From: Clostridia bacterium
GTDB taxonomy: Bacteria; Bacillota; Clostridia; Lutisporales; Lutisporaceae
Reading direction: 5' to 3'
Length of the DNA: 64,000 nt
NCBI GenBank assembly: GCA_035628995.1
Contig: DASPIR010000026.1
Coordinates: 62,001 to 126,000, forward strand
Position numbers and translations under genes: made by a program. Every line of letters begins with the position of its first letter. Positions within the stretch are counted from its first letter, which is position 1. Below the pieces are notes generated by a model. The model was not told where the DNA came from and ran no database searches. It saw nothing but the letters and a program-made list of their open reading frames with translations. This document shows, one piece after another, positions 5,350 to 23,784 of this stretch.

Positions 5350-6528
5350 ATGACTTCAGATATAGTAATTGGGAAACCTGAATTATTAAAAAGAATAAAT
5401 CGCAATATCATTATAAAATTGATTATCAAGCATGGTGTTATCAGCCGGTCTGAGCTTTCAAAGATTACTAAACTAGCTCTTCCGAGCGTTATGAGAATAG
5501 TTCAGGGCTTAATAAGTGAGAACCTTCTGAAAGAAGTGGGCAAGGGGGATTCCACCGGTGGACGCAAACCTAGCTTAATTACACTCAATCAGGAGGCGCT
5601 ATATATAATCGGCGTTGAAATTGCAATTAAAACTACCATGGTTCTTACCGATCTAGGCGGAAATGTAATTGACAGATGGGAATCGCCGCAAGAGACATAC
5701 GTGTCACCGGTTGAAATGCTTGAAAGGATTAATGTGAATATTGAAAGGCTGATAGCCAGTCATCAAATTGACCGTAAGAAAATTGCCGGAATTGGTATTG
5801 GTACACCGGGTTCTAATTTCAAGCATATTAAGGATGTCGAAAACTCTATCCTGAAAGGGTGGGAGAAAATAGATGTTAAAGCGTGGTTTGAGTCAAAAAC
5901 GGATTTGCCTATATTTATCGACAATGTAGCCAGAACAAGAACACTAAGTGAGCTTTGGTTCGGTATCGGCAAACGTATTAAGAGTTTTATTTATGTTTTT
6001 ATCGATAAAGGCGTAGGCTGCGGAATTGTAAACAACAATACAATACATGAAGGTTACAGCTCGGTAGCTGGAGAATTCGGGCATACAATTATAGAATATG
6101 ATGGAAGAGAGTGCTATTGCGGCAACCGGGGGTGCGTCGAAATGTATGTTTCGGCTGGTGCGATAACAAATGAAGTTATTAAAGCTCTGAGCATATCAGA
6201 GGAGGATTTTAAGTTCAAGAACGTGATAGAGCTGGAAAGTGAGCCAAAGGTTCAAAAGGTTTTATCCGATAGCGGCAAAATATTAGCTGCTGGTGTAGCA
6301 AACCTGATTAACATTTTCAATCCTCAGGCAGTAGTACTCGGGGGTATTGTCCCAAGTGAGAGCCGGTACTTTGCTGAGGCAGTCATGCAAGCTATTGATG
6401 CAAATGTATTTTCTAACAATGCTATGAAGACTCCGGTTTTTATAAGCGAAGTTGATCAAGAGAGGATTTGTATTGGAAGTGTTGCACTGGTAATAAATGA
6501 AGTGTTTAAATCTGTAGAGCTCAGTTAA
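5350..6528 (+). CDS. ROK-family transcriptional regulator (XylR/NagC-like)
   Basis: A sugar-responsive DNA-binding protein of 392 residues. An N-terminal winged helix (about residues 12-70, SRSELSKITKLALPSVMRIV) is followed by a ROK sugar-kinase-like fold. The zinc motif CYCGNRGC, with the preceding GEFGHTII, and the glycine-rich IGIGTPG are present. ROK repressors usually control a nearby sugar operon and bind a sugar or sugar phosphate. The D-lyxose isomerase, sugar kinase and ABC importer genes downstream are the obvious targets, but no operator could be matched to it. ATG 5350 follows AAGGAGAAG. Confidence 0.88.
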   Translation: MTSDIVIGKPELLKRINRNIIIKLIIKHGVISRSELSKITKLALPSVMRIVQGLISENLLKEVGKGDSTGGRKPSLITLNQEALYIIGVEIAIKTTMVLTDLGGNVIDRWESPQETYVSPVEMLERINVNIERLIASHQIDRKKIAGIGIGTPGSNFKHIKDVENSILKGWEKIDVKAWFESKTDLPIFIDNVARTRTLSELWFGIGKRIKSFIYVFIDKGVGCGIVNNNTIHEGYSSVAGEFGHTIIEYDGRECYCGNRGCVEMYVSAGAITNEVIKALSISEEDFKFKNVIELESEPKVQKVLSDSGKILAAGVANLINIFNPQAVVLGGIVPSESRYFAEAVMQAIDANVFSNNAMKTPVFISEVDQERICIGSVALVINEVFKSVELS

Positions 6529-7408: not shown

Positions 7409-8095
7409 ATGAAGCGTTCACAAATAAATCAGGAAATTAAGTGGGCAAAGGAATTATTGGAGAAAAGCAATATTAAATTGCCCCCCTTCGGTTATTGGAC
7501 TTTAGAAGAATGGAAATCTGGCGAAAGAAACCTGGAGATCATTAAAGAAGTCATGCTGGGCTGGGATATAACAGACTTTGGGAAAGAAAGGTTTAATGAA
7601 TTTGGTGCTGTCTTGTTTACATTAAGGAACGGCTCTTTAAGGGATAGCCGAATTGGTACCCCATACGCGGAAAAGCTTATTCTTTTAAAAGAGGGGCAGA
7701 GACTCCCGCTTCACTATCATGCAAACAAGACTGAAGATATCATAAACAGAGCTGCCGGAGTTATGGCTATAAAGCTATATAATTCTCTGGAGAATGGCGA
7801 GGTGGATTATGAATCAAAGGTCAGCGTTGATTTAGACGGAGTAACATATATTTTTGCAGCTGGTGAAGAAATAGATATATACCCCGGCAACAGCATCACG
7901 CTGAGACCTTATGTATACCACGTGTTTTGGGCTAAGAAAGGCTGCGGGGATCTGGTATGCGGAGAGGTGTCCTCCATTAATGACGACAATACAGACAATT
8001 TTAATGCAGAAGATGTAAGCAGATTTTCTAAGGTGGAAGAGGATGAGCCTATTTTATATCCCCTTTGCAATGAATATACTACTGTATTATATTGA
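7409..8095 (+). CDS. D-lyxose ketol-isomerase
   Basis: A metal-dependent cupin enzyme that interconverts D-lyxose and D-xylulose and, in characterised members, also D-mannose and D-fructose. The 228-residue length and motif order fit the family: PPFGYWTLEEW near the N-terminus, PLHYHANKTEDI with the first metal ligands, a RPYVYHVFWAK strand with a later His, and GEVSSINDDNTDNF near the end. An Mn2+-type site would be formed by the two His of HYH, a Glu and the later His. AGGAGG precedes ATG 7409. With the PfkB kinase downstream it gives a sugar to ketose to ketose-phosphate route. Confidence 0.88.
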   Translation: MKRSQINQEIKWAKELLEKSNIKLPPFGYWTLEEWKSGERNLEIIKEVMLGWDITDFGKERFNEFGAVLFTLRNGSLRDSRIGTPYAEKLILLKEGQRLPLHYHANKTEDIINRAAGVMAIKLYNSLENGEVDYESKVSVDLDGVTYIFAAGEEIDIYPGNSITLRPYVYHVFWAKKGCGDLVCGEVSSINDDNTDNFNAEDVSRFSKVEEDEPILYPLCNEYTTVLY

Positions 8096-8324: not shown

Positions 8325-9269
8325 ATGTTTGATATAATTGCTGTAGGGGAATTGCTGATTGACTTTACACCTATAAAAAATGAAGACGGTATATTCTTTA
8401 AAGAAAACCCGGGGGGAGCACCTTGCAATATGCTCACCATGGCTCAAAAGCTAGGTTCAAAAACGGCTTTTATCGGCAAGGTAGGCAATGATCAGTTTGG
8501 GATTCAGCTGGGGAAGGTTCTAAAGGCTCAGGGTATTGATATATCGGGGCTTGTATATTCTGAAGAATACAATACAACACTAGCCTTTGTCCATCTTGAT
8601 GAGGGTGGGGACCGCAGCTTTAGCTTTTATCGAAATGGCTGCGCAGATGTTATGCTTGAGAAATCTGAAGTGGATTATACATTGTTGGATAAGACAAGGG
8701 CATTGCATTTTGGTTCGCTTTCCTTTACCAATGAACCCAGCAGATCTACTGTTTTGGATATAGTCGAATATGCCAGAAAAAAAGACAAGCTGATTTCCTA
8801 TGACCCGAATTATCGGCCAGCATTATGGGCATCTGAGGCAGCAGCTGTTAAAGGCATGAGAATGGGGCTGGAATATGCGGATATTATTAAAGTCTCAGAG
8901 GAAGAAGCAGTGCTTTTAACTGGTGAGGATGATTTTTACAAAGCAGCGGAGAGATTGTATAAAGATGGAATAAAGCTTGTATGTGTGACACTTGGGGAAA
9001 AAGGTTCGTTTTATTATCATAAAAATGGACATGGAATTGTAAATGGATATAAGAGCACGGTAGTTGATACTACCGGGGCAGGGGATTCATTCTTTGGGGC
9101 AGCTGTGCATCAGATTTTACAAAGAAGCGGTTTGGATGAACTCACAGCGCAAGATTTAAATGAGATTTTTTCCTTTTCCAACGCTGCGGCTTCAATATGT
9201 ATAGAAAACTTTGGGGGAATCCCTTCCATTCCTTCAAAAGAGGATGTTTTGAAGAGATTAGTGGTGTAA
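8325..9269 (+). CDS. PfkB-family sugar kinase, fructokinase-like
   Basis: A cytosolic ATP-dependent kinase of the ribokinase fold. It starts FDIIAVGELLIDFTP and has the substrate-binding glycine motif NPGGAPCNML near residue 28. The catalytic anion-hole motif DTTGAGDSFFGA, with the catalytic Asp, is near residue 247. The length of 314 residues is normal for fructokinases. AGGAGG precedes ATG 8325. Because it follows D-lyxose isomerase and precedes the sugar sensor and importer genes, the substrate is probably the ketose made by the isomerase (D-fructose or D-xylulose); the sequence alone cannot decide between them. Confidence 0.87.
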   Translation: MFDIIAVGELLIDFTPIKNEDGIFFKENPGGAPCNMLTMAQKLGSKTAFIGKVGNDQFGIQLGKVLKAQGIDISGLVYSEEYNTTLAFVHLDEGGDRSFSFYRNGCADVMLEKSEVDYTLLDKTRALHFGSLSFTNEPSRSTVLDIVEYARKKDKLISYDPNYRPALWASEAAAVKGMRMGLEYADIIKVSEEEAVLLTGEDDFYKAAERLYKDGIKLVCVTLGEKGSFYYHKNGHGIVNGYKSTVVDTTGAGDSFFGAAVHQILQRSGLDELTAQDLNEIFSFSNAAASICIENFGGIPSIPSKEDVLKRLVV

Positions 9270-9307
9270 TTAGTTAATCTAAGCAATTGCAAATAGAGGG
9301 GGACCAT

Positions 9308-10909
9308 ATGTATAGAGTTATTATTGCTGACGATGAGCCTAAAGTATCTCAACTTATCAAAAACCTCATAGAGTGGGAGAACCTGAATCTTGAGCTTGCA
9401 GCAACAGCGACCGATGGAATAAATGCTCTGGAACTAATTAAAAAACATAGGCCGGACATTGTCATTACAGATATAAGAATGCCGGGCTATGATGGGATTG
9501 AATTGATTAAGTATGCAAAGGAAATCAATCCTAACATTGACTTTATCATTATCAGCGGATATCAACATTTTGATTATGCTCACAATGCAATTAAATACGG
9601 CGTCAAGGATTATTTGCTAAAACCCCTTAGCAAGAATGAAATCAATGCAACACTATCAAAAATGATTGATAAGTATTCTGAAAGATCACGACAAGAAATG
9701 CATCACCTGGAAGATATTAAAAGGCAGAAGAGTGAGTTCCTGCAGAATATTTATCTTGGTTCGAATACACTGGTGCTTAAAGAGACGAGTTTATTTCAAA
9801 TAAATGAGGATTACAATGTGAGCTTTATAGAAGGCTGTTATCAGGCACTTATTATTAAACCTGATTTTGAGTATCAACCCAATAATCAAGATACAATGAG
9901 AATGCTTCTTTGTAAAATTTCTAAAATTGTAGACCAGAGCCTTGTAGATATATGTTCAGAAATCCTTTGGCTTTTGTTAGAGGATCGGATATATATCATA
10001 GTTAATTATAAAACTGAGAATAAGAAGATGTTCAGAAAAGCATTAAACAATATTATTGATGAAAGTCATTTGTTTAGGGATATTGTAAAGAACCTTACGA
10101 TAACAATCAGCGTTGGCAATACTCAGACAACCCTTGTAGACATGGACCAATCAACTAATGAAGCAAAAGAAGCTCTTGCTGATAGAATCGTTATAGGGAG
10201 CGGGAGAATCATCCAATATAATACTGAACTACATATGAAGAGGTCAGTCGAATCCATTGTATCCTTTGAAAAAAGAAGGAAGCTTATAGATTTGATAGAG
10301 ATTTTTGATGCTATAGAAATTAAAAGATGGATTGAAGAGATAGAGGTGGAGATTTTAAGGCTCCCCAATATATCCGGACAATTTATCCTGGATACCATTA
10401 ATGAGATTATTGAAATCATTTTATTCGGCTTAAAGAACCATGCAAATATAAGTACAATTGATAAAAGTGTAATCAATGAATTTCATGAAGCTCTTCTTAT
10501 GCAGAACAATACTCGGGCAGTTTTTGAAGCAACTAATAAATATGTGGGTAAAATGCTTCAGCAAATCGCAGACGATCGGAAGAATGAAAGCAACCGCCCA
10601 ATTAAGGAAGCTCAAAAGTATATTAATGAGCACTATGCATCTGCTGTAAATCTCGAGGAAGTAAGTGCTGTTATTGGTTTTAATGCTACTTATTTTTCAA
10701 CACTGTTTAAAAAGGAAACTGGCATGAACTTTTTAGAATATGTGACAATTGTAAGAATTAAAGCAGCCAAGCAGCTGTTGTCTGATTCAAAGAAAAGTAT
10801 TTTGGATATATCTCACGAAGTGGGTTATAACGATTTCAAGCATTTTACAAAGCAATTCAAAAAAGTCACTAGCCTTACCCCATCAGAATATAGAAAACTA
10901 TATTATTAA
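9308..10909 (+). CDS. YesN-like response regulator with AraC output domain
   Basis: A two-component transcription activator of 533 residues. The receiver domain covers about residues 1-120, with DDE acidic residues near the N-terminus and the phospho-acceptor in DIVITDIRMPGYDG. A central domain of about 250 residues follows, then two AraC-type helix-turn-helix motifs (AVNLEEVSAVIGFNATYFST and ILDISHEVGYNDFKHFTKQF). ATG 9308 has AGAGGGGG just upstream; the earlier ATG at 9287 does not. The cognate sensor follows directly, and the likely target is the downstream importer operon. Confidence 0.9.
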   Translation: MYRVIIADDEPKVSQLIKNLIEWENLNLELAATATDGINALELIKKHRPDIVITDIRMPGYDGIELIKYAKEINPNIDFIIISGYQHFDYAHNAIKYGVKDYLLKPLSKNEINATLSKMIDKYSERSRQEMHHLEDIKRQKSEFLQNIYLGSNTLVLKETSLFQINEDYNVSFIEGCYQALIIKPDFEYQPNNQDTMRMLLCKISKIVDQSLVDICSEILWLLLEDRIYIIVNYKTENKKMFRKALNNIIDESHLFRDIVKNLTITISVGNTQTTLVDMDQSTNEAKEALADRIVIGSGRIIQYNTELHMKRSVESIVSFEKRRKLIDLIEIFDAIEIKRWIEEIEVEILRLPNISGQFILDTINEIIEIILFGLKNHANISTIDKSVINEFHEALLMQNNTRAVFEATNKYVGKMLQQIADDRKNESNRPIKEAQKYINEHYASAVNLEEVSAVIGFNATYFSTLFKKETGMNFLEYVTIVRIKAAKQLLSDSKKSILDISHEVGYNDFKHFTKQFKKVTSLTPSEYRKLYY

Positions 10910-10962: not shown

Positions 10963-11025
10963 ACCTTAATGTCGTGCTCTGCTGCTGGAGGCGAATTCTA
11001 TTACAGAGCACTTGAGAGGGATTAT

Positions 11026-12075
11026 ATGTTTAGATTAAGGATGCATAGCTCCAAAACTATGAAAACTTATTTGCACAGCACTGTAGTCAGAGCAATAAAG
11101 ACTTTGCTGATATTATATCTGCTAAGCTTAATTACGATGGTTTTTATATTCCTCACATCTAAAGTTCACTATTCACTCTATATCGCCTGCGCAGCGAGCT
11201 TCATAATATTTATCATCAGTCTTATATGGATGTATAAAAAGCTATATTTGCCATATAAGAATACAGAGAAAACTCTCCAAAGCTTCAATCTAGGGTATAA
11301 TTCAAATGCGCTGAATGAAATAGACACCTATTATACTGAAGAAATGGAAAAAGCATTTTCTAAGTTTTTTAGTCTCTTTGAAAGTATGAACGCTATTAAG
11401 CTGACCAATACCCATGCGGAATATAGAGCTCTCCAGAATCAAATAAACCCTCACTTTTTGTACAATACTTTAGAAGCCATTAGAAGTGATGCCATTTGTG
11501 AAGGTTCCGAGAATATTGCCAATATTACTGAGGCTCTTGCTACATTTTTCAGATATACGATTTCAAATGTAAACAGCATGGTAACCCTTGAAGCCGAGAT
11601 AAATAATTCTGAGAATTATTTTGCGATTCAAAATTTCCGCTTTGGAGATAAAATTAATCTAAAAATAAATTTAGACGATGAGGACATGTCGATATTAGAG
11701 TATGAAATTCCTAAATTGACACTCCAGCCAATTATAGAAAATGCAATCATACATGGTCTGGAGCGTAAAGTGGGTCGAGGTACAATTGAGATTGATATAA
11801 CATTAACAGAGGATAGACTTCTAATTAAAATCACGGATGATGGGGTTGGAATGGATGAAAATGTACTAAGCAGTATTAACAATCAATTGCATGAAATTTC
11901 CGGACAGGGACTTAAGCAAAATAACGCTCAAAAGGGCGGTATTGCCTTAATCAATGTCAATAATAGAATCAAGCTGCAGTTCGGTGAAAAATATGGTCTG
12001 AGGATATACAGCATAAAAGACTTTGGGACAAGAGTGGAAGTTACACTGCCTCAAATAAAAGAAAATGACGGGTGA
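11026..12075 (+). CDS. YesM-like sensor histidine kinase
   Basis: A membrane sensor kinase of 349 residues. Two hydrophobic segments (about residues 27-75) lie close together with only a few residues between them, so there is no large extracellular sensor domain such as YesM usually has. A coil (EEMEKAFSKFFSLFES) leads to the phospho-acceptor motif LQNQINPHFLYNTLEAI and an HATPase domain with ENAIIHGLE and DDGVGMD. Lacking its own ligand domain, it may read the state of a partner such as the importer or the degenerate ABC protein encoded next. ATG 11026 follows GAGAGGGA; an earlier in-frame ATG at 10969 has no ribosome site. Confidence 0.88.
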   Translation: MFRLRMHSSKTMKTYLHSTVVRAIKTLLILYLLSLITMVFIFLTSKVHYSLYIACAASFIIFIISLIWMYKKLYLPYKNTEKTLQSFNLGYNSNALNEIDTYYTEEMEKAFSKFFSLFESMNAIKLTNTHAEYRALQNQINPHFLYNTLEAIRSDAICEGSENIANITEALATFFRYTISNVNSMVTLEAEINNSENYFAIQNFRFGDKINLKINLDDEDMSILEYEIPKLTLQPIIENAIIHGLERKVGRGTIEIDITLTEDRLLIKITDDGVGMDENVLSSINNQLHEISGQGLKQNNAQKGGIALINVNNRIKLQFGEKYGLRIYSIKDFGTRVEVTLPQIKENDG

Positions 12076-12079
12076 TCCT

Positions 12080-13483
12080 ATGAAACGAGAAATATTGAGG
12101 ATTGAAAACATTACAATTAAAGAAAAAGGAATAAAAACACTTAATGACTTTTTTTTGAACTTATATCAAGGGGAGTTGTTAGGTGTTTTTGTTAATAATG
12201 CAATTGAGAAAAAGCATCTGATTGACTTGATTTATGGCAATGTGGAGGTTGAAAGGGGCAGGATATGCTACGAAAATTTACCAATCAGTTATGAAGATTA
12301 TGTTGGCATAAGAAAGAATAAAATTTCATTGATACAATCAACCAGTAAATTAATTGATGATCTCATTGTCGCAGATAACATTTTTGTTATTCGCGATAAA
12401 TTTGGACGTTATCTGATTGATACAAAAGTTATATGTGAGCAAACAAAGAACCTGCTAAAGGAGCTTGATTTGGAAATAGACCCCGGAAAACTTGTGCACC
12501 TGCTTTCCAGCTTTGAAAAAACAGCAGTGGAAATTGCCAAAGCTTATGGACTGGGAGCAAAGATTATTATTCTGAAGGACCTGTCCAGCTATCTGTCAGA
12601 CTTCGAGTTGAATCAGCTTATAGAAATCATTGACAAGCTAAAGAGTAACGGTATTTCTTTTATAATGATTGACAGCTTCACGGATATTTTAAAACAGTTC
12701 TCTGATCGGATGTTTGTTATGAAAAATGGACGGAATGTATGGACGCTGAAGGGTGAGCAAATCAATGATGACATTTTAGAAACATATTTTTATAGCCCCA
12801 AGCATGAAATATCAAGCAATGCTGCTGCAAGACATACTATAGCACTGAGGTTTGATCGTGTCTCAACTGATAAATTGGAACCCTTAAGCTTCGAAATCCA
12901 TTCAGGGGAAATGCTGAGTATACTTGATCACGATGGATCCTATATAGATGAAATAATTAAAGTACTAAACGGGGAAAACAATTCGTACAAAGGAGAGGTA
13001 TTCGTTGGGGATCGATTATTCAGCTCTCGAAAGCCATGGGAGGCAATAAGAAATGATTTGGCATTTGTTGTGGAGAACCCGATAGAATCGATGCTTTTTA
13101 AAGATATAACAGCAATAGATAATCTTTGTTTTGCTTCCAGCAATAAAGTAAACACATTTTGGATGAATTCAAAGTTCAGAAGAAGCTGTACCGATAATTA
13201 CGAAGGATTTTTTAAAGGAGCGTTGAATGCTCAAACTGAATCCCTGTCAGTATATGATCAACAGAAATTAGTATACCTGAAATGGCATCTGTACAACCCA
13301 AAGGTAGTTGTTTGTACAAGGCCTTTCAGTTCAATAGATGTTGAATTAAGGGAAATCACTTCTGAAATGATGGGGCTGCTATTGGAAAAAGGTATAGGAA
13401 TACTCGTGCTGGCATCCAATTATTCTGAAATAAACAACACCGGGACAAAAATTGTATTAAGACCCAAAGAATACCCCTTATAA
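12080..13483 (+). CDS. Degenerate RbsA-like tandem ABC ATPase (predicted pseudo-ATPase)
   Basis: A 467-residue protein with the two-domain layout of sugar-importer ATPases such as RbsA but without their catalytic residues. Domain 1 has FVNNAIEKKH (about residues 37-46) where the P-loop GENGAGKST should be, LLSSFEKTA for the signature, AKIIILKDL for Walker B, and MIDSF where the switch histidine should be. Domain 2 has ILDHDGSY, LSVYDQQK and VVVCTRPFSS at the same places. The rest of the fold is well kept, for example VEIAKA, so it is a folded paralogue and not a decaying gene; the frame is open throughout. It begins just after the sensor kinase gene and has GGGTGA before ATG 12080. A regulatory role linking sensor and importer is inference. 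Confidence 0.8.
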   Translation: MKREILRIENITIKEKGIKTLNDFFLNLYQGELLGVFVNNAIEKKHLIDLIYGNVEVERGRICYENLPISYEDYVGIRKNKISLIQSTSKLIDDLIVADNIFVIRDKFGRYLIDTKVICEQTKNLLKELDLEIDPGKLVHLLSSFEKTAVEIAKAYGLGAKIIILKDLSSYLSDFELNQLIEIIDKLKSNGISFIMIDSFTDILKQFSDRMFVMKNGRNVWTLKGEQINDDILETYFYSPKHEISSNAAARHTIALRFDRVSTDKLEPLSFEIHSGEMLSILDHDGSYIDEIIKVLNGENNSYKGEVFVGDRLFSSRKPWEAIRNDLAFVVENPIESMLFKDITAIDNLCFASSNKVNTFWMNSKFRRSCTDNYEGFFKGALNAQTESLSVYDQQKLVYLKWHLYNPKVVVCTRPFSSIDVELREITSEMMGLLLEKGIGILVLASNYSEINNTGTKIVLRPKEYPL

Positions 13484-13589
13484 TCATAAGAATGACCTTA
13501 GAAACGCAGGTTTAACTTTGATAAGATTATAAATAAGGATAATATTATTTACTGCAAATTAGACCTTGCTCATCTAAGGGGGAATGCAT

Positions 13590-15080
13590 GTGTCAGACTA
13601 TTTGATAGAATTAAAAGGAGTCAGCAAAGTATTTCCAGGTGTTAAAGCACTGGATAAAGTTTCTTTCTTATTAAAAGCTGGTGAGGTGCATGCTCTTGTA
13701 GGTGAAAATGGAGCAGGGAAATCAACTTTAATGAAGATTATAAGCGGGATTTATAATCGTGATGAAGGCGAATATTTGATTGATGGTGTTAATATAGGTG
13801 ACTTGACACCGAAGAAAGCACAAGAGCATGGAATCGCTATTATTCATCAGGAGTTAAATATGTGCCAGGATTTGACGGTTGCAGAAAATATGTTTTTGGG
13901 CAGGGAGAAGAGCAAGCTTGGCTGTGTTCAGCAAAATGAAATGAACAGAGCTGCTAAAGAGATTCTTGACAAGCTTAAAATCGATATAGAGCCGGACACA
14001 GTACTTAGAAAATTGCCGGTATCAAAGCAGCAAATGGTTGAGATTGCTAAAGCGTTATCAACTAATGCCAGAATTCTAATAATGGATGAACCAACTTCTG
14101 CACTATCAGATAGAGAGATAGTGGAACTGTTTGATATTATCAAGCATTTAAAAGGGAATGGATGCGCCATAGTATATATATCACACAGATTAGAAGAGCT
14201 TGAGCACATTACAGACCGTATTTCAATATTCAGGGATGGCAGGCATATAGTCACGAAGGATTATAAAGATACAAACCTGAATGAGATAATATCATATATG
14301 GTTGGCAGAGAGATAAAAGAGAAATTTCCAACAATAGAATGTAAAAGAGGACAAAAGCTTTTAGAAGTAAAAAACCTATGTTCAGGTATTGTCAATAATG
14401 TAAGTTTTGATTTGTCCCAGGGTGAAATCGTGGGGTTTGCAGGACTGATTGGGGCGGGAAGAACTGAATTAGTCAGAGCACTGTTTGGAGCGGAGGATAT
14501 AACAAGCGGCGAAATATACCTGAAGGGGAAAAAGCTGAATATAAAGACTCCTAAGGATGCCATCGTTGAGGGAATTGTACTTGGGCCGGAGGATCGAAAA
14601 AAGGAAGGCTTATGTACAAAACTATCAATTCGAGAGAATATAGGACTTGCAAACCTTGACCAGATTTGCAGCAAGGTTGGAATCGTCAATAGACGGAAGG
14701 AAAACAAATTAGCTGAGGAAGCTGTTGAAAAGCTTAAGATTAAAACACCATCTCCAGAGCAAGTTGTAAATAATCTATCAGGTGGGAATCAGCAAAAAAT
14801 TGTAGTAGGAAAATGGCTGGTAAGAAGTGCTGAAGTGGTGATATTTGATGAGCCCACTCGAGGTATTGATGTAGCGGCAAAAGTAGAGATATATAACATT
14901 ATGAATGAACTTAAGAGGCAGGGAATCGGAGTTATCTTTGTCTCGTCGGAAATGCCTGAAGTTATGTGTATGAGTGACAGAATTCTGGTAATGTGCAATG
15001 GAAGGATTACAGGAGATCTGGTTTCCAGAGAAACAACACAGGATGAAATCCTACGTTGCGCAACTAAATACAGTCATTAA
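13590..15080 (+). CDS. rbsA-like: Sugar ABC importer ATP-binding protein, RbsA/MglA type
   Basis: The ATPase subunit of a carbohydrate ABC importer, 496 residues, with two nucleotide-binding domains. Domain 1 has the P-loop GENGAGKST, signature-like VSKQQMVEIAKAL and Walker B LIMDEPTSALSD; domain 2 has GLIGAGRTE and LSGGNQQKIVVGKWL, the normal asymmetric pattern of the family. It energises uptake through the permease encoded next. The start is GTG 13590, placed 7 nt after AAGGGGG (13576-13582); the ATG at 13584 is too close to that site. It follows the degenerate paralogue by 106 nt. Confidence 0.92.
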   Translation: MSDYLIELKGVSKVFPGVKALDKVSFLLKAGEVHALVGENGAGKSTLMKIISGIYNRDEGEYLIDGVNIGDLTPKKAQEHGIAIIHQELNMCQDLTVAENMFLGREKSKLGCVQQNEMNRAAKEILDKLKIDIEPDTVLRKLPVSKQQMVEIAKALSTNARILIMDEPTSALSDREIVELFDIIKHLKGNGCAIVYISHRLEELEHITDRISIFRDGRHIVTKDYKDTNLNEIISYMVGREIKEKFPTIECKRGQKLLEVKNLCSGIVNNVSFDLSQGEIVGFAGLIGAGRTELVRALFGAEDITSGEIYLKGKKLNIKTPKDAIVEGIVLGPEDRKKEGLCTKLSIRENIGLANLDQICSKVGIVNRRKENKLAEEAVEKLKIKTPSPEQVVNNLSGGNQQKIVVGKWLVRSAEVVIFDEPTRGIDVAAKVEIYNIMNELKRQGIGVIFVSSEMPEVMCMSDRILVMCNGRITGDLVSRETTQDEILRCATKYSH

Positions 15081-15121: not shown

Positions 15122-16162
15122 ATGCAGAATAAAGAACACAGCTTTAATGGCATGTGGAGACAAATAGTATCAATCAGAGGCATGGGGCAGGTAATTTCAG
15201 TATCAATCGCACTAATAATCATGACGATTGTATTTGGTATTATAAACCCCTTGTTTTTTTCGCCTGATAATACGACTAACCTTCTGCGCCAAGTTGTTCC
15301 AATTATGATAATTGGTATGGGGCAATCCTTTGTATTAATAACAGGTGGTATTGACCTATCCATTGGTTCGGTTGCAGGAATGTCATCCATGATATCTGCA
15401 ACATTAATGACTGCCGGTCACATGAACCCTTGGCTGGCAGCACTTATAACCATTTTGGCCTGCTGTGTTGTCGGGCTGTTTAATGGACTCCTCGTGTCCA
15501 AGGCAAAGCTTCCTGCATTTATAGCAACCTTGGGAACAATGATAATTGCAAGAGGTATTGCTCAATTGGTAAATGGCAACATGAATACTGATGGAATTCC
15601 GGAAAGTGCCAAAGTCTTTAAGGACCTGTTTTACTATGGTGATACCTTTGGACTGTACAATCCAATATGGATTGGGTTGATATTATTCATATTCTTCAAT
15701 TTTATCTTATCCAGAACCAGAACCGGGAGGCATACCTACGCTATCGGGAGCAACTATGAGGCAGCAAAGCTTTCGGGAGTCAATGTCATTCTGGCTGAAA
15801 GCAAGGTATACATTTTTAGTGCATTCCTTGCAGGAATTGTAGGATTGATGCTGACCGCACAAAGTGGCATGGGAACTATGAGTGCCGGAAACATGTATGA
15901 ACTGAATGCTGTGGCTGCATCTGTCATAGGTGGTGTAAGTACGATGGGAGGCCAAGGCTTACTGTTTGGAACAGTAATTGGTTCTTTCATCTGGGGAGTA
16001 TTAAACAACGGACTTCAATTTGCCGGGGCTCCATTGGCTCTTAGAAACCTGGTAATAGGAGTTGTAGTTATAATATCAGTCCTAATTGACAGGGTGGCTA
16101 GAAGTGGAAAATTTGATTTCAGAAAAGTGTTAAAAAGCAAAGGAGTTAATATTTCCAGCTAG
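15122..16162 (+). CDS. rbsC-like: Sugar ABC importer permease, RbsC type
   Basis: The membrane subunit of the importer: 346 residues with about ten hydrophobic segments. Family motifs are ITGGIDLSIGSVAGM, which places a conserved Asp and Gly motif near residue 80, and GSNYEAAKLSGVNV, the cytosolic loop that contacts the ATPase. One such protein forms a homodimer in characterised systems. AAAGGAGAAG precedes ATG 15122. It lies 41 nt after the rbsA-like gene and 72 nt ahead of the binding-protein gene. Confidence 0.92.
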   Translation: MQNKEHSFNGMWRQIVSIRGMGQVISVSIALIIMTIVFGIINPLFFSPDNTTNLLRQVVPIMIIGMGQSFVLITGGIDLSIGSVAGMSSMISATLMTAGHMNPWLAALITILACCVVGLFNGLLVSKAKLPAFIATLGTMIIARGIAQLVNGNMNTDGIPESAKVFKDLFYYGDTFGLYNPIWIGLILFIFFNFILSRTRTGRHTYAIGSNYEAAKLSGVNVILAESKVYIFSAFLAGIVGLMLTAQSGMGTMSAGNMYELNAVAASVIGGVSTMGGQGLLFGTVIGSFIWGVLNNGLQFAGAPLALRNLVIGVVVIISVLIDRVARSGKFDFRKVLKSKGVNISS

Positions 16163-16234
16163 TTTCAAATTGATTTTTATCATGGTGTAACGTGCGCCAT
16201 GAATAAATAATAATAAATATGAGGAGTGGAGAGA

Positions 16235-17185
16235 ATGAAAAAAATCTTAGTATTCCTACTGATTTTAACAATGGCATTTGCCTTTACAGCATGTGCGCCT
16301 AAAGTGGAAACACCAGTTGCAGCGGCAGCTCCTGAAGCTGCAGCCCCAGCCCCAACCCCAACTAAGACCGTTTACTTAATCACAATGGACAAAATGGACC
16401 AGCACTGGGTGAATGTTGATGCAGGCGCAAAGACCATGGCTGAAGCCTTGGGACTAAATTACAAATGGGATGCACCAGATGTAAAAGACAATGCTAAACA
16501 GATTGAAGCAGTTAATAATGCAGTTGCAGATAAAGCAGATTTAATCTTGCTTGCAGCAAATGATCCGAAAGCTATTTCAGAAGCAGTCAAAACTGCAAAA
16601 GCAAAAGGCGTAAAAATTATATATGTTGACTCAGCAGCAGACGAACCAGCTATTGCAACATTGTCAACAAACAATCGTCAAGCAGGAGTACTGGCAGGAC
16701 AGACAATGGTAGATGAGTTAAAAGCTGCTGGTAAAACAAGTGGCAAAATAGGTATCATAAGTGTTAATACTGCAACAAATTCAACAATGAATAGAGAAAA
16801 TGGCTTTAAAGAAGTTGTTGCGGCTGCTGGATATACTATTTTGACAACAGAATATAAAGATGGCGATGCTGCTGCTTCCCAAGAAGCTGCATATGGCTTT
16901 ATTGCCGGAAATGAAGATCTGGTTGGATTATATGGAACAAACGAAGGTTCAACTGTAGGCGTAGGAAATGCAATAAAAGCAGCGGGCAAGAGCATTATAG
17001 GCATTGGCTTTGATAAATCAGACGCAATTCTGGGACTGCTGAAAGACGGTAGTTTAAAGGCAGCAATGGCACAGAATCCATTTACAATGGGCTATTTGGG
17101 AGTTGCACAGGCTTATGCAGCGTTAAACGATAAAAGCACAGGTCCTGCAGTAATAGATACAGGCGTAGCAATTCTTAGAAAATAG
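16235..17185 (+). CDS. rbsB-like: Sugar ABC importer substrate-binding lipoprotein, RbsB type
   Basis: The extracytosolic binding protein of the importer, 316 residues. A signal peptide ends in a lipobox FTAC, so Cys22-23 is probably lipidated. An Ala/Pro-rich linker follows, then a two-lobe periplasmic-binding fold of the ribose/galactose class: TVYLITMDKMDQHWVNVDAG, then DLILLAANDPKAISEAVKTA and IGIISVNTATNSTMNRENGF. The sugar bound cannot be read from sequence; the pentose and hexose isomerase next door suggests D-lyxose, D-mannose or a related sugar. ATG 16235 follows GAGGAGTGGAGA. Confidence 0.9.
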   Translation: MKKILVFLLILTMAFAFTACAPKVETPVAAAAPEAAAPAPTPTKTVYLITMDKMDQHWVNVDAGAKTMAEALGLNYKWDAPDVKDNAKQIEAVNNAVADKADLILLAANDPKAISEAVKTAKAKGVKIIYVDSAADEPAIATLSTNNRQAGVLAGQTMVDELKAAGKTSGKIGIISVNTATNSTMNRENGFKEVVAAAGYTILTTEYKDGDAAASQEAAYGFIAGNEDLVGLYGTNEGSTVGVGNAIKAAGKSIIGIGFDKSDAILGLLKDGSLKAAMAQNPFTMGYLGVAQAYAALNDKSTGPAVIDTGVAILRK

Positions 17186-18823: not shown

Positions 18824-19180
18824 ATGGATCAGAATTTTGGAACGCTAGGTATATTCTTATTAGGGGGAATTGCTTTTGGGTTCATTGTAATAATCACCAA
18901 TTGGTTCGTCAGACCAAAGCGGCCTAACTATGAAAAAGAGAAGACCTATGAATGCGGATTGGACACTGTAGGACCTACATGGGTACAATTCAGGATCAGC
19001 TATTTTTTATATGCACTTATATTTGTAATATTTGATGTGGAAACAGTATTTCTTTATCCATGGGCTGTAGCATTTAAAGCTGTTGGAATTTTTGGATTTG
19101 TAGAAATGTGTATATTCGTTGGAATGCTTTCAGCGGGATTATTGTATGCATGGAAGAAAGGAGCATTAGAATGGAAGTAA
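18824..19180 (+). CDS. nuoA: Complex I subunit NuoA
   Basis: A membrane subunit of NADH:quinone-oxidoreductase-type complex I, 118 residues with three transmembrane segments. The conserved loop [20 protein letters not shown], between the first and second segments, carries the Cys that lies near the quinone channel in known structures. It is the first gene of the eleven-gene nuo operon and overlaps nuoB by 10 nt. Confidence 0.95.
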
Positions 19181-19758
19181 ATAATAATGATAAAGAGCAA
19201 AATATAGAAAAAGTATTTGATGAAGAGCTGTTCCAAAAAGAAATGGAATTAAATGAGATAGATAATAACAGCTTGAGAGATTTTTTGACAAACCACGTGG
19301 TTTTTACTACATTGGAAAAGGGTATAGATTTCTGTCGTTCCAATTCTTTATGGCCCCTTTCCTTTGGGCCTGCATGCTGTGCAATAGAGATGATGGCGTC
19401 TGGTGGTGCGAGATACGATATATCACGTTTTGGCTATGAGGTTTTCCGTCCATCACCACGTCACGCGGATGTTATGATAGTTGCAGGAACAGTAACCAAT
19501 AAAATGGTTCCTGTTGTAAAGAGACTATATGATCAGATGGCGGAACCCAGATATGTTATAGCCATGGGCAGCTGTTCAATTACAGGAGGGCCTTTTGCAG
19601 ATTCCTATTCAGTGCTGAGAGGAGTGGACCGGATTCTCCCTGTGGATGTAATAATTCCGGGATGTCCACCGAGACCTGAAGCATTAATAGAAGGCTTTTT
19701 GAAACTCAAAGCCAAATTAAATAAACCGGAGATTGCGAAGGTGAATAGAAATGATTGA
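19171..19758 (+). CDS. nuoB: Complex I subunit NuoB (N2 iron-sulfur cluster)
   Basis: The 195-residue subunit that carries the terminal 4Fe-4S cluster N2, which passes electrons to quinone. The ligands are visible in [10 protein letters not shown] (two adjacent Cys), GSCSITGG and [10 protein letters not shown]. The N-terminal extension of about 35 charged residues is longer than usual. ATG 19171 overlaps the nuoA stop and has AAGGAG 8 nt upstream; the frame stays open further 5' but without a ribosome site. It overlaps nuoC by 8 nt. Confidence 0.95.
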
Positions 19759-20194
19759 TATTGTAAGCCTTGTAGAAAAGCTAAGTGTCACTTTTAAAGA
19801 TCGGTTGGAGCTTTCTGAAACTGGACAGGCAATATATGTTAAACGGCAAAGTATTATAGATGTTCTCAAAGCCTTGAAGGATGAGTTTAATTTTATAAGG
19901 CTCATGGATGTTACATCAGCTGATTATGAGGACAGGTTTGAGGTAGTGTATCATTTGATGAATGATGAGGTAAAGCTGCTTGCTGTGAAAGTGAAGCTTG
20001 AAAAAAGTGACAGTATAATACCTTCCATTGTTTCTGTCTGGAGATATGCTGAATCAATGGAAAGAGAAGTCTACGACCTGATGGGTGTAGTATTTGAAGG
20101 TCATGAAAACCTTAAGAGAATCTTGAATCCCGAGGATTTTGTAGGCCATCCCCTTCAAAAAAGCTTTAAATTAGATGTAGTCAGCAGATTTTAG
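19751..20194 (+). CDS. nuoC: Complex I subunit NuoC
   Basis: A 30-kDa-type subunit of the peripheral arm, 147 residues. The family motif is [20 protein letters not shown] followed by [14 protein letters not shown]. This is a stand-alone NuoC, not the NuoCD fusion of enterobacteria. It docks with NuoD and NuoB near the quinone site. Confidence 0.93.
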
Positions 20195-20254
20195 GGTAAA
20201 TTGTTTAGAGAGTTTACCCCAAATTAATATCTAAGCGAGGAGGAAGAGTTTGAG

Positions 20255-21370
20255 ATGGCATTGATGGAAGAAAATTTTGAGACCCAGGAATATAAAATTA
20301 ACTTAGGGCCTGCACATCCAAGTACCCATGGGGTATTTAGAGCGGTTCTCACACTTAACGGAGAGGAAATTATAAAATCCGAGAATCATATAGGATACCT
20401 TCATAGAGGGATAGAGAAGCTTGCTGAAAGCCGTACCTATGCTCAATTTGCTGCATTGACCCCAAGGATCGATTACTTGGCAGGAGCTTTAAATAACTGG
20501 GGATATGTAGTTACGGTTGAAAAATTAATGGAAATTGAGGTTCCTGAAAGGGCAGAATATCTTCGAGTTATAATAGGTGAACTTCAGAGAATAGCAAGTC
20601 ATCTTATTTTAATATCGAGTACATGTATAGACTTAAATGCGACTACTGCATGGATGTACGGCTTTTCTGCCAGGGAAGGAATATTGGACCTGCTTGAAAT
20701 GGTCACAGGCTCAAGAATGATGCCGGCCTATTATACCATAGGGGGAGTAATGGACGACTTGCCTCTGGAATTCATCCCTGCAGCAAAGAAAGTAATAGCA
20801 GATTTAAATGACAGGCTCAATGATGTAGATGGAATGATTTCAGGAAATGAAATATTTCTGTCCAGGACAAAGGGGGTAGGTGTCATAACTCCCGAGAAAG
20901 CCATTGAGTTCGGCATTACAGGACCGAATTTAAGAGCTGCAGGAAATGCATATGACCTTAGAAAAATAGCTCCATACAGCGTTTACGACAAGTTTGATTT
21001 TGATGTACCGGTACTTAAGGATGGAGACTGCTTTGCCAGATTTAGTATGCGTATATTGGAAATCAGACAGAGCATAAGGATAATTGAACAGGCAATCGCT
21101 TCATTACCTGAAGGACCTATAACTGCAAAGGTCCCAAAAATAATAAAGCCTCCAATTGGAGAGGTCTATAACCAGATTGAAAGCGCAAAGGGAATACTGG
21201 GCTACTATATAGTAAGTGATGGAAGTACAAAGCCATATAGACTGCATGTACACTCACCTTCATTTGTGAATATAGGGATTTTCCCGGAGATTGCAGTAGG
21301 GATGTATGTGCAGGACTTTATTGCAACACTTGCTTCCTTTGATATTTGCCTGGGTGAAATTGACCGATAA
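20255..21370 (+). CDS. nuoD: Complex I subunit NuoD (49-kDa type)
   Basis: A 371-residue subunit that forms the quinone-binding pocket with NuoB. Residues equivalent to the quinone-contacting His and Tyr of known structures are present: AHPSTHGVFR and SRTYAQFAAL. The nickel-binding CxxC pairs of related [NiFe] hydrogenase large subunits are absent, and the protein ends CLGEIDR, so this is a quinone-type complex and not an Ech/Mbh-type hydrogenase. AGGAGGAAGAG lies upstream of ATG 20255. Confidence 0.95.
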   Translation: MALMEENFETQEYKINLGPAHPSTHGVFRAVLTLNGEEIIKSENHIGYLHRGIEKLAESRTYAQFAALTPRIDYLAGALNNWGYVVTVEKLMEIEVPERAEYLRVIIGELQRIASHLILISSTCIDLNATTAWMYGFSAREGILDLLEMVTGSRMMPAYYTIGGVMDDLPLEFIPAAKKVIADLNDRLNDVDGMISGNEIFLSRTKGVGVITPEKAIEFGITGPNLRAAGNAYDLRKIAPYSVYDKFDFDVPVLKDGDCFARFSMRILEIRQSIRIIEQAIASLPEGPITAKVPKIIKPPIGEVYNQIESAKGILGYYIVSDGSTKPYRLHVHSPSFVNIGIFPEIAVGMYVQDFIATLASFDICLGEIDR

Positions 21371-21427
21371 AGTCTCCGGCGAATGCATACGATTTTGAAA
21401 ATACGGCTTTTGAGAAGGAGAATCTAA

Positions 21428-22468
21428 ATGGAATTGATAAATAATATTTTTATTAGCGGCGCTAACTTAATAAGAAATATTTTGCATTGGATTGGTTTTG
21501 GCGACGTATTTACCAATCTGATTATGTCAGTGGTATATTTTGTTGCAATTGCAGCAGTAGTAACTTTTAACATAATAATAATCCTATGGATAGACCGCCG
21601 TGTTTCCAGCTTTTTTCAGGAAAGACTGGGACCAAACAGAGTTGGGCCATTTGGACTTTTACAGTCAATGGTTGATGCAGCAAAGCTGATTGGTAAAGAG
21701 TCAATAATTCCTGATGCGGTGGACAAGGTTGTTTATAAAGCGGCACCAATTTTTATATTTACTGTAACTATGATGCTTTATGCATTGCTTCCTTATGGAC
21801 AGGGAATGTCTGCAGTTAACATAAATGTAGGAATATTATGTTTTGCAGCTATATCCTCAACTTCCACAATAGCAATTCTTATGGCAGGATGGGGTTCAAA
21901 CAACAAGTATTCACTAATAGGAGGCATGAGAACCGTTGCACAGGTTATAAGCTATGAAATACCTCTTTGTTTTTCAATGCTTGGTGTTGTTATGATTGCA
22001 GGAACATTAAATTTAAATGAAATTGTACTTTCTCAGGGTAAGGTATGGTATGTGTTTCTCCAGCCTGTTGCATTTGTAATATTTATAATTTCTGCACTGG
22101 CTGAATTAAACAAATCTCCCTTTGATATGATGGAAGCCGAACAAGAGATTGTAGCAGGTTATCATACTGAATATACAGGAATGCGTTTTGCATTATTCTT
22201 CATGGCGGAATATGCCAACCTGTTTGTTTTGGCTGGACTTGGAGTAACACTGTTCTTTGGTGGATGGGATGGACCATTCCTGCCATCATGGATGTGGTTT
22301 ATGATTAAAACCTACTTAATGATTCTCTTCCTAGAGTGGGTTAGATGGACTCTGCCAAGAGCGAGAGTTGATAAAATGATGCAGTTTAATTGGAAGGTTC
22401 TTATTCCAATATCCATAGCAAATATATTCGTTACTGGAATTATAATAAAGTTGTTTCACATTATTTAA
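21428..22468 (+). CDS. nuoH: Complex I subunit NuoH
   Basis: A 346-residue membrane subunit that joins the peripheral and membrane arms and forms the quinone tunnel entrance. Motifs are FFQERLGPNRVGPFGLLQSM and LAELNKSPFDMMEAEQEIVA. About eight transmembrane segments are visible. AGAAGGAG precedes the start. Confidence 0.95.
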   Translation: MELINNIFISGANLIRNILHWIGFGDVFTNLIMSVVYFVAIAAVVTFNIIIILWIDRRVSSFFQERLGPNRVGPFGLLQSMVDAAKLIGKESIIPDAVDKVVYKAAPIFIFTVTMMLYALLPYGQGMSAVNINVGILCFAAISSTSTIAILMAGWGSNNKYSLIGGMRTVAQVISYEIPLCFSMLGVVMIAGTLNLNEIVLSQGKVWYVFLQPVAFVIFIISALAELNKSPFDMMEAEQEIVAGYHTEYTGMRFALFFMAEYANLFVLAGLGVTLFFGGWDGPFLPSWMWFMIKTYLMILFLEWVRWTLPRARVDKMMQFNWKVLIPISIANIFVTGIIIKLFHII

Positions 22469-22486
22469 TAGTTTGGAGGTGCTCAC

Positions 22487-22948
22487 ATGTACGGTTTCGG
22501 TATATTAAAAGGAATGGGCATAACAATGAAAAGATTCTTTATGAAGAAGGTTACACAGCAGTATCCGGAAGTAAAGCCCAATTTACCTCCACGCTCCCAT
22601 GGCTCCTTTGGTTTTGACTTTGATAAATGCATATCCTGCAATCTGTGCGTAAATGCATGCCCTAACGGAGTAATAAGGGTTGATTCTGAAAAGGATGAAA
22701 ATGGTAAAAAGGCTCTTCAACAATATAACATGAGTCTTGGATATTGCTTGTATTGTGGATTTTGTACAAAGGCATGTCCCACAAAAGCGATTTATTTCAA
22801 AACTGATTTTGATACTATATGCTACAACAAGACTGACGTAATTCGTCAGTGGAAAAAGAGTGAAAAGGTAAAGGAAGACTATTTTGCTGAAGTAGCAGCA
22901 ACAACCTCGGAAGAGCCTAAAATAGAGCAGAAAGAGCGGGGGGTATAA
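22487..22948 (+). CDS. nuoI: Complex I subunit NuoI (two 4Fe-4S clusters)
   Basis: A 153-residue ferredoxin-like subunit with two complete cluster motifs, CISCNLCVNACP and CLYCGFCTKACP. These pass electrons to NuoB. Since no NuoE, F or G gene is present, NuoI may be the entry point for a soluble electron donor such as ferredoxin. The C-terminal tail (about residues 125-153) is charged and Lys/Glu-rich. GGAGGTG precedes ATG 22487. Confidence 0.95.
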   Translation: MYGFGILKGMGITMKRFFMKKVTQQYPEVKPNLPPRSHGSFGFDFDKCISCNLCVNACPNGVIRVDSEKDENGKKALQQYNMSLGYCLYCGFCTKACPTKAIYFKTDFDTICYNKTDVIRQWKKSEKVKEDYFAEVAATTSEEPKIEQKERGV

Positions 22949-22951
22949 TTA

Positions 22952-23452
22952 ATGGTTACATCTATAGTATTTTATGCAGTAGCTGCTCTCATTATATTTG
23001 CAGCCCTCAAAATGGTACTGTCAACAAACCTTGTACACAGCGCACTTTTTATGGCGATTGCCTTTGCATGTATCGCTATAATATATTTACTGCTTAATGC
23101 AGACTATCTGGCTGTGGTTCAAGTAATGGTGTATGTAGGTGCTATAACCATACTGTTTGTTTTCGGAGTCATGCTCACTAAGAGAGAATATATAGAGAAA
23201 AGCAGTCAGTTCAATAGGTACAAAGTATATGGAGCGATTGTGGCAGCAGCACTTTTTATAGTTTTCGCATTAAACATATTTAATGCAAAATTTACTTTAT
23301 CTACAGCTGTTCCGCCTGATTCCACAATAAACGCTATATCATCACTTCTACTTAACGATTACTCAATTGCATTCCAGGTGGTGGGTGTGCTGCTTCTGGT
23401 TGCAACCATAGGAGCAATTGTAATCGGGAAAGGGGTGAAGAGTACAAGATGA
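22952..23452 (+). CDS. nuoJ: Complex I subunit NuoJ
   Basis: A 166-residue membrane subunit with five hydrophobic segments. The third, VVQVMVYVGAITILFVFGVM, contains the conserved Tyr and Gly involved in the pi-bulge of the coupling helix. It overlaps nuoK by 4 nt. Confidence 0.93.
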   Translation: MVTSIVFYAVAALIIFAALKMVLSTNLVHSALFMAIAFACIAIIYLLLNADYLAVVQVMVYVGAITILFVFGVMLTKREYIEKSSQFNRYKVYGAIVAAALFIVFALNIFNAKFTLSTAVPPDSTINAISSLLLNDYSIAFQVVGVLLLVATIGAIVIGKGVKSTR

Positions 23453-23757
23453 TTACTCTACAGCATTATTTAATTTTAGCAGCAATTCTCTTTTGCATAG
23501 GACTGTATGGTGCAGTTTCGAAAAAAAATGCCATATCGGTTTTTATGTGTATCGAGCTTATGCTTAATTCGGTAAATATTAATCTTGTAGCTTTTAATCG
23601 CTTTCTAAATCCTGATGTGCTGGCAGGGCATACATTTGCAATTTTTGTAATTGCTGTTGCTGCCTGCGAAGTGGCTGTGGGACTTGCGATAATTATATTA
23701 CTGTACCGCCACAGAACATCCACTACCATAGACGACATAGACCTTTTAAAATGGTAG
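23449..23757 (+). CDS. nuoK: Complex I subunit NuoK
   Basis: A 102-residue, three-helix membrane subunit of the MrpC type. The two Glu residues of the proton path are seen in FMCIELMLNSVNINLVAF and CEVAVGLAIIILLYRHR. Confidence 0.94.
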   Translation: MITLQHYLILAAILFCIGLYGAVSKKNAISVFMCIELMLNSVNINLVAFNRFLNPDVLAGHTFAIFVIAVAACEVAVGLAIIILLYRHRTSTTIDDIDLLKW

Positions 23758-23784
23758 ATTATACAATAAGGCAGGTGAATATTA

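What the first reader, a model, noticed from the sequence alone, without database searches (positions are those of the whole stretch)
12080..13483. Pseudo-ABC ATPase between a sugar sensor kinase and the real importer ATPase
Seen in the sequence: an intact 467-codon RbsA-like gene has lost the P-loop lysine and glycines, signature, Walker B acid and switch histidine in both halves, while the general fold and open frame persist. It sits between a YesM-like kinase that has almost no extracellular sensor domain and a complete, normal RbsA/RbsC/RbsB set. Known family logic: transporters can signal through sensor kinases that lack their own ligand domain, as in BceS-type systems. Inference: the dead ATPase may dock to the permease or kinase and report transport state, an undescribed type of sugar-flux sensing. 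I am not aware of a described function for such a protein.
Basis: partly seen in the sequence, partly recalled or inferred. Interest (0 to 1): 0.72.

Follow-up and report, generated by a model that had tools for sequence, protein, structure and literature searches.

The report
Dead transporter ATPase serving sensorless kinase
Many gut and soil Clostridia keep a transporter motor protein that can no longer burn ATP, encoded next to a sensor kinase that has no sensor of its own, which suggests the dead motor lets the kinase read the state of the sugar importer.

Summary
In detail: window 12080-13483 encodes a 467-aa RbsA-like double-NBD protein without usable catalytic motifs. It is not a decaying pseudogene. 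Relatives occur in at least 100 genomes across Clostridia plus one Bacillus. They form one clade separate from working RbsA. All 82 full-length members lack the P-loop consensus, the NBD2 LSGG signature, the NBD2 Walker B acids and the switch histidine. They share a new invariant PF (mostly QPF) motif where NBD2 Walker B was. dN/dS is 0.04-0.19. In 75 of 80 named loci a YesM kinase made of a bare two-helix hairpin lies directly upstream, and 72 of 80 loci also carry rbs genes. In 391 class genomes the kinase and the dead ATPase occur in exactly the same 13 genomes, even where unlinked (G346). The segments that dock on the permease are more conserved than in working RbsA, while the catalytic ones are lost. 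Best explanation: the dead ATPase is the third component of a YesN/YesM system. It probably docks on RbsC in place of RbsA and passes sugar or transport state to the kinase. The signalling role is well supported; the docking step is inferred. I found no published description.

The parts
12080..13483 (+). Degenerate RbsA-like protein (proposed co-sensor), 467 aa; double NBD fold, catalytic motifs lost
   Evidence: ORF; Pfam ABC_tran on NBD1; motif loss; AlphaFold2 mean pLDDT 85.1 with a full double-NBD fold; Foldseek best hits include fused double-NBD importer ATPases such as DppD and OppD
12070..12079 (+). Shine-Dalgarno-like GGGTGA plus spacer, overlapping the YesM stop codon; suggests translational coupling
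   Evidence: sequence
10969..12075 (+). YesM-like histidine kinase with a two-helix membrane hairpin and no extracellular domain. Relatives suggest the true start may be ATG 11059.
   Evidence: Pfam His_kinase and HATPase_c; 45% identical to the partner kinase of G057; hydropathy; a relative's model has helices 13-40 and 44-80 with a 3-residue turn
9287..10909 (+). YesN-like response regulator (receiver plus AraC-type HTH)
   Evidence: Pfam Response_reg and HTH_18; conserved partner
13584..15080 (+). Working RbsA (all motifs intact). It belongs to an RbsA clade whose sampled members all come from these loci.
15122..16162 (+). RbsC permease (BPD_transp_2); proposed docking partner
   Evidence: neighbourhoods
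16226..17185 (+). RbsB sugar-binding protein (Peripla_BP_4)
7409..8095 (+). D-lyxose/D-mannose isomerase; points to the substrate of the operon
   Evidence: Pfam Lyx_isomer; NCBIfam best hit below its cut-off; also present at 13 of 80 related loci
8325..9269 (+). PfkB-family sugar kinase, fructokinase-like
5350..6528 (+). ROK-family regulator upstream of the sugar genes
   Evidence: NCBIfam NagC/Mlc-like, below cut-off

Best explanation
The protein is a pseudo-ATPase that acts as the third, sensing component of a YesN/YesM two-component system. An RbsA paralogue was recruited to the two-component system, lost ATP hydrolysis, and kept its double-NBD body and its permease-docking grooves. Proposed mechanism: it docks on the RbsC dimer in place of RbsA, forming a non-transporting RbsB-RbsC2-dead-ATPase receptor. 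When sugar-loaded RbsB binds, or the permease changes state, the movement passes through the dead ATPase to the sensorless YesM hairpin kinase, which then phosphorylates YesN, which controls the operon. Shown: loss of catalytic motifs, retained fold (predicted), purifying selection, obligate pairing with the sensorless kinase, usual linkage to one RbsABC lineage, preferential conservation of the docking segments. Inferred: physical contact with RbsC and with YesM, the direction of the signal, and control of the operon. My confidence is about 0.85 for 'conserved signalling partner of the sensorless kinase' and about 0.5 for the full RbsC-docking mechanism; the number given here is for the full mechanism.
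For: (1) Conservation: relatives in 13 of 391 class genomes; 104 confirmed stretches in named genomes, 80 kept; 3 more genomes in other parts of the phylum. (2) One clade apart from working RbsA, SH-aLRT 100; in both the kinase tree and the dead-ATPase tree the window's copy is sister to the rest. (3) Purifying selection: dN/dS 0.04-0.19 in close pairs, similar to or somewhat above the kinase and YesN of the same loci. (4) Pairing: YesM directly upstream in 75 of 80 loci; the trio YesN-YesM-dead ATPase is kept whether it lies upstream (41 loci) or downstream (28 loci) of rbs genes, so the trio is the unit. (5) Co-occurrence: the 13 genomes with the dead ATPase are exactly the 13 with the closest kinases (E <= 1e-87; next best 1e-67). 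In G346 the two genes lie on different contigs and both persist. (6) No sensor: partner kinases are two-helix hairpins. (7) Docking surface kept, catalysis lost: conservation relative to working RbsA is 1.32 and 1.35 for the two post-Q-loop segments, against 0.63 for Walker A1, 0.63 for signature 2 and 0.75 for Walker B1. (8) Generality: four more distant sensorless YesM kinases each sit beside another RbsA-like paralogue, from near-intact to decayed. (9) Fold predicted intact.
Against: No physical interaction is shown. A read-through fusion of kinase and dead ATPase modelled from 10 sequences gave pTM 0.33 and no defined arrangement, which is uninformative rather than negative. Mirror-tree partial correlations were weak for YesM (0.18) and RbsC (0.13) and highest for YesN (0.51), possibly only a shared rate. 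The post-Q-loop segments could be conserved for binding something other than RbsC. Eight of 80 loci show no rbs gene on the stretch held (some at contig ends). The window's own copy is only 25-33% identical to the sampled family members, and no close relative was found to measure its own dN/dS.
Confidence: 0.5

Rival explanations
1. The dead ATPase binds only the kinase and is itself the input domain. It senses a cytoplasmic ligand (a nucleotide, sugar phosphate or other metabolite) or acts as a scaffold, without touching the permease.
For: Pairing with the kinase is as tight as or tighter than with the transporter: YesM directly upstream at 75 of 80 loci, any rbs gene at 72 of 80. N and the last G of the P-loop column remain in most members and K in 24 of 82, so some pocket may survive. 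New conserved motifs (QPF, HHEE, LVN-Y) replace the catalytic ones.
Against: Among the motif regions inherited from RbsA, the permease-docking ones gained conservation while the catalytic ones lost it. Most loci do carry rbsABC, and the sampled partner RbsA proteins form one clade, which a free-standing metabolite sensor would not need.
Confidence: 0.25
2. The dead ATPase is a regulator of transport rather than of the kinase: it competes with RbsA for RbsC and throttles import, and is merely co-transcribed with the two-component system.
For: Retained docking segments; shared operon with rbsABC.
Against: The gene moves with YesN-YesM, not with rbsABC, when the operon is rearranged. Kinase and dead ATPase occur in identical genome sets. 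The kinase would be left without any input.
Confidence: 0.13
3. A duplicated RbsA decaying as a pseudogene, with the open frame kept by chance.
For: Catalytic motifs are lost; the window's copy is divergent, 25-33% identical to the sampled family members.
Against: dN/dS 0.04-0.19, one ancient clade, invariant new motif PF in 82 of 82, conserved synteny, confident fold.
Confidence: 0.02
4. It still binds and slowly hydrolyses ATP through unusual residues and works as an energy-state sensor or as a transporter subunit.
For: K44 is present in the window's P-loop column; more distant TCS-linked relatives (L158, L157, L179) keep partial or full motifs.
Against: No member has a P-loop consensus, a switch His, an NBD2 LSGG or NBD2 Walker B acids, and only 2 of 82 keep both NBD1 Walker B acids.
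Confidence: 0.05

Closest known systems
CuaDSR and XylFII-LytS/YesN three-component sugar systems of Clostridia (PMC10384115)
   Same: A transporter-derived third protein gives sugar input to a kinase and a YesN/AraC-type regulator that controls an ABC sugar importer.
   Different: There the third protein is an extracellular solute-binding protein and the kinase has an extracellular domain that binds it. Here the third protein is a (predicted cytoplasmic) pseudo-ATPase and the kinase has no extracellular domain.
BceAB-BceRS (intramembrane-sensing kinase plus ABC transporter; PMC7828314)
   Same: The kinase lacks an extracellular sensing domain and depends on an ABC transporter for input.
   Different: BceA is a working ATPase and BceB has a large extracellular loop. 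Here the importer is of the sugar CUT2 type and the extra ATPase is dead. The kinase is of the His_kinase PF06580 (YesM/LytS) type.
RbsA / CUT2 ABC ATPases (AraG, XylG, MglA, YtfR)
   Same: Evolutionary origin, length and double-NBD fold.
   Different: All catalytic motifs are lost; a normal RbsA sits beside it; its score reaches no NCBIfam family cut-off (158.9 against 850 bits for the best hit).
UhpC-UhpB and PstSCAB-PhoU-PhoR (from general knowledge, not tested here)
   Same: A transporter or transporter-like protein acts as receptor for a kinase.
   Different: Those receptors are a permease homologue or a working transporter with an adaptor, not an inactivated ATPase subunit.

Membership tests
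RbsA / CUT2 sugar-importer ATPase | Two fused NBDs of the ABC fold | tested here: met
   AlphaFold2 mean pLDDT 85.1, pTM 0.73; Foldseek hits to fused double-NBD importer ATPases with TM about 0.7
RbsA / CUT2 sugar-importer ATPase | P-loop GxxGxGK[ST] in NBD1 | tested here: not met
   0 of 82 members against 76 of 76 working RbsA
RbsA / CUT2 sugar-importer ATPase | Walker B acids and LSGG signature in NBD2 | tested here: not met
   0 of 82 for each, against 73 of 76 and 76 of 76
RbsA / CUT2 sugar-importer ATPase | Switch histidine in NBD1 | tested here: not met
   0 of 82 against 76 of 76
RbsA / CUT2 sugar-importer ATPase | Hydrolyses ATP to drive import | not testable with these tools
   needs biochemistry
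SBP-type three-component sugar sensing (XylFII-LytS, CuaDSR) | Third gene next to a YesN-type regulator and a kinase | tested here: met
SBP-type three-component sugar sensing (XylFII-LytS, CuaDSR) | Third protein is a solute-binding protein | tested here: not met
   It is an ABC ATPase homologue
SBP-type three-component sugar sensing (XylFII-LytS, CuaDSR) | Kinase has an extracellular domain | tested here: not met
   two-helix hairpin
BceS-type transporter-coupled kinase | Kinase with two membrane helices and almost no extracellular loop | tested here: met
BceS-type transporter-coupled kinase | Partner is a BceAB transporter with a large extracellular loop | tested here: not met
   The partner is RbsABC (PF02653 permease and PF13407 binding protein)
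BceS-type transporter-coupled kinase | Physical complex of kinase and transporter | tested here: inconclusive
   read-through fusion model at pTM 0.33 is uninformative

The most novel reading that the evidence does not exclude
A general, undescribed way of building sugar sensors in Clostridia: RbsA paralogues attach to YesN/YesM systems, the kinase loses its own sensor, and the ATPase then decays catalytically into a dedicated receptor subunit that reads the permease. This would be a signalling ABC complex run by a pseudo-ATPase, caught at several stages of decay (intact L158, part-decayed L157 and L179, decayed L161/L156/L155 and the main family).
Probability: 0.45. Interest if true: 0.85.

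Novelty: new variant of a known kind. Interest (0 to 1): 0.72.

Why it matters
Transporter-coupled signalling is known through binding proteins, permeases and working ATPases. An inactivated ABC ATPase as the dedicated partner of a sensorless kinase would be a new class of receptor part and a bacterial pseudo-enzyme example comparable to pseudokinases. The proteins score as ordinary sugar ABC ATPase relatives, so annotation likely hides them (inference). The family occurs in gut genera such as Blautia and Enterocloster, in cellulose degraders (Ruminiclostridium) and in Caproiciproducens, and may control uptake of several sugars. The order of decay, with a sensorless kinase beside a near-intact ATPase in L179, makes the evolutionary path testable.

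Tried and rejected
- Apparent YesM-dead-ATPase fusions of 922-923 aa in L111 and L113: rejected. The N-terminal half is an out-of-frame translation and the real YesM lies in another frame.
- First named-genome scan with the window's protein alone found nothing, because the window's copy is too divergent; the profile scan succeeded.
- Kinase-dead-ATPase interface by AlphaFold2 on an artificial read-through fusion of L079 with 9 in-frame relatives (stops read as Gly): mean pLDDT 64.8, pTM 0.33, uninformative. It did show a 3-residue turn between the two membrane helices.
- Mirror-tree correlations: weak and confounded.
- Solved CUT2 ATPase close to the window's RbsA: none at E <= 1e-60.
- Literature searches for a pseudo-ATPase co-sensor: nothing relevant. 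The library lacks most subscription papers, so a description elsewhere is possible.
- Searching the window's own order (22 genomes) for closer relatives: none.

Full report
**What was checked.** The frame 12080-13483 is open for 467 codons. Its start is supported by GGGTGA overlapping the YesM stop and by the shared MK-EILR N-terminus of relatives. It is an RbsA-like double NBD. Pfam finds ABC_tran only on the first half, and NCBIfam finds only CUT2 and other ABC ATPases far below their cut-offs. The next RbsA in the same operon is fully intact. Aligned to it, the protein has lost the P-loop glycines, Walker B acids, signatures and NBD1 switch His. K44 still sits in the NBD1 P-loop column. Working RbsA proteins never have the P-loop Lys or the switch His in NBD2 (0 of 76).

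**Conservation.** In 391 genomes of the class, 13 (the window's own included) carry a clear homologue. A profile scan of named genomes confirmed 104 stretches, of which 80 were kept. Of these 80, 77 are assigned to Bacillota, 69 to Clostridia and 1 to Bacilli. A phylum-wide sample added three more genomes, all again with YesN-YesM upstream and RbsA downstream. The family is one side of a starred branch from working RbsA. The window's member is sister to all other sampled members; its kinase has the same position in the kinase tree. No other genome of its own order has the gene. Pairwise dN/dS is 0.04-0.19, near the YesN and YesM values of the same loci and a little above RbsA. This is a constrained protein, not a relic.

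**Genomic anatomy.** tblastn-based neighbourhoods show YesM directly upstream at 75 of 80 named loci. The exceptions are a contig end (L080), one genome with the genes on different contigs (L074) and three loci where a chemoreceptor gene (recognised by eye) lies between (L085-L087). Two layouts occur: YesN-YesM-dead-RbsA-RbsC-RbsB (41 loci with RbsA just downstream) and RbsA-RbsC-RbsB-YesN-YesM-dead (28 loci). The trio thus moves as a block. The RbsA proteins at the sampled loci form their own clade. Metabolic neighbours differ: D-lyxose/mannose isomerase at 13 loci, ROK proteins, and inositol genes beside L042 by eye. The module therefore seems to serve more than one sugar.

**Link to the kinase.** Nearly all partner kinases score as a hydrophobic hairpin, and none has room for an extracellular domain ahead of the DHp motif. 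A model of a relative shows helices 13-40 and 44-80 with a three-residue turn. Searching the same 391 genomes with the kinase gives the same 13 genomes at E <= 1e-87, with the next hit at 1e-67. Those 13 genomes span six families. In G346 the kinase locus has no dead gene, but an intact copy persists on another contig. The genome is a MAG (L074), so mis-binning is possible.

**A wider pattern.** More distant sensorless YesM kinases (L155, L156, L161, L179) each sit beside yet another RbsA-like gene. These range from near-intact motifs (L179) to decayed (L155, L156, L161). Two sensor-bearing YesM kinases (L157, L158) also have an RbsA-like gene directly before YesN, with partial or full motifs. 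In the tree the ones included fall between the dead family and working RbsA, but their branches are long and the order is unsure.

**What is kept and what is lost.** Relative to working RbsA, conservation in the dead family is 0.63 in Walker A1, 0.75 in Walker B1 and 0.63 in signature 2. It is 1.32 and 1.35 in the two post-Q-loop segments. From established ABC transporter structures these segments form the groove for the permease coupling helix. The former NBD2 Walker B region is also highly conserved (1.20) but with a new sequence. New invariant positions appear there instead of catalytic ones, notably PF (82 of 82; QPF in 69). The predicted structure is a complete double NBD; its PDB matches include fused importer ATPases such as DppD.

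**Interpretation.** A kinase with no sensor and an ATPase with no catalysis have been kept together across Clostridia, usually with one sugar importer lineage. The simplest account is that the dead ATPase supplies the kinase's input. Because its permease-docking surface is the part of RbsA it kept best, I propose that it occupies RbsC in place of RbsA and reports the state of the permease or its binding protein to YesM. Contact with RbsC, contact with YesM and the direction of the signal are inferred. The attempt to model contact with the kinase was uninformative.

**Comparison with what is known.** It works like XylFII-LytS and CuaDSR and like BceAB-BceS, in that a transporter part informs a kinase. 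It is a member of neither: the third component is not a binding protein, and the transporter is not BceAB. It descends from RbsA but fails RbsA's catalytic defining features. Searches of 5.39 million open papers gave no description.

Noticed in passing
L050:3565-5361; also L091, L094, L099, L105, L122, L131: The RbsB next to many of these modules is a single 600-650 aa open frame; in L050, the one read in full, it is two nearly identical sugar-binding domains in tandem. This is unusual for the RbsB type.
   Followed up: partly
L158:9684-11210 and L157:3450-4943: RbsA-like genes with intact or partly intact motifs lie directly before YesN and a sensor-bearing YesM; possible evolutionary forerunners of the dead ATPase.
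   Followed up: partly
L179:5800-7470: RbsA-like protein with a near-intact NBD1 P-loop (GINAAGKST) and a Lys in the NBD2 P-loop, next to a sensorless YesM; suggests the kinase lost its sensor before the ATPase lost its motifs.
   Followed up: partly
L154:13078-15285 and L085:9853-11889: Large chemoreceptor-like (MCP) genes in the same sugar operons, recognised by eye; chemotaxis toward the same sugar may share the transporter.
   Followed up: no
window 18824-28597: What looks by eye like a long NADH dehydrogenase (nuo) gene cluster directly after the sugar operon; not tested.
   Followed up: no
window 12080-13483: None of the 21 other genomes held from the same order carries this gene, so the host probably acquired the module from another Clostridia lineage or its relatives lost it.
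   Followed up: partly
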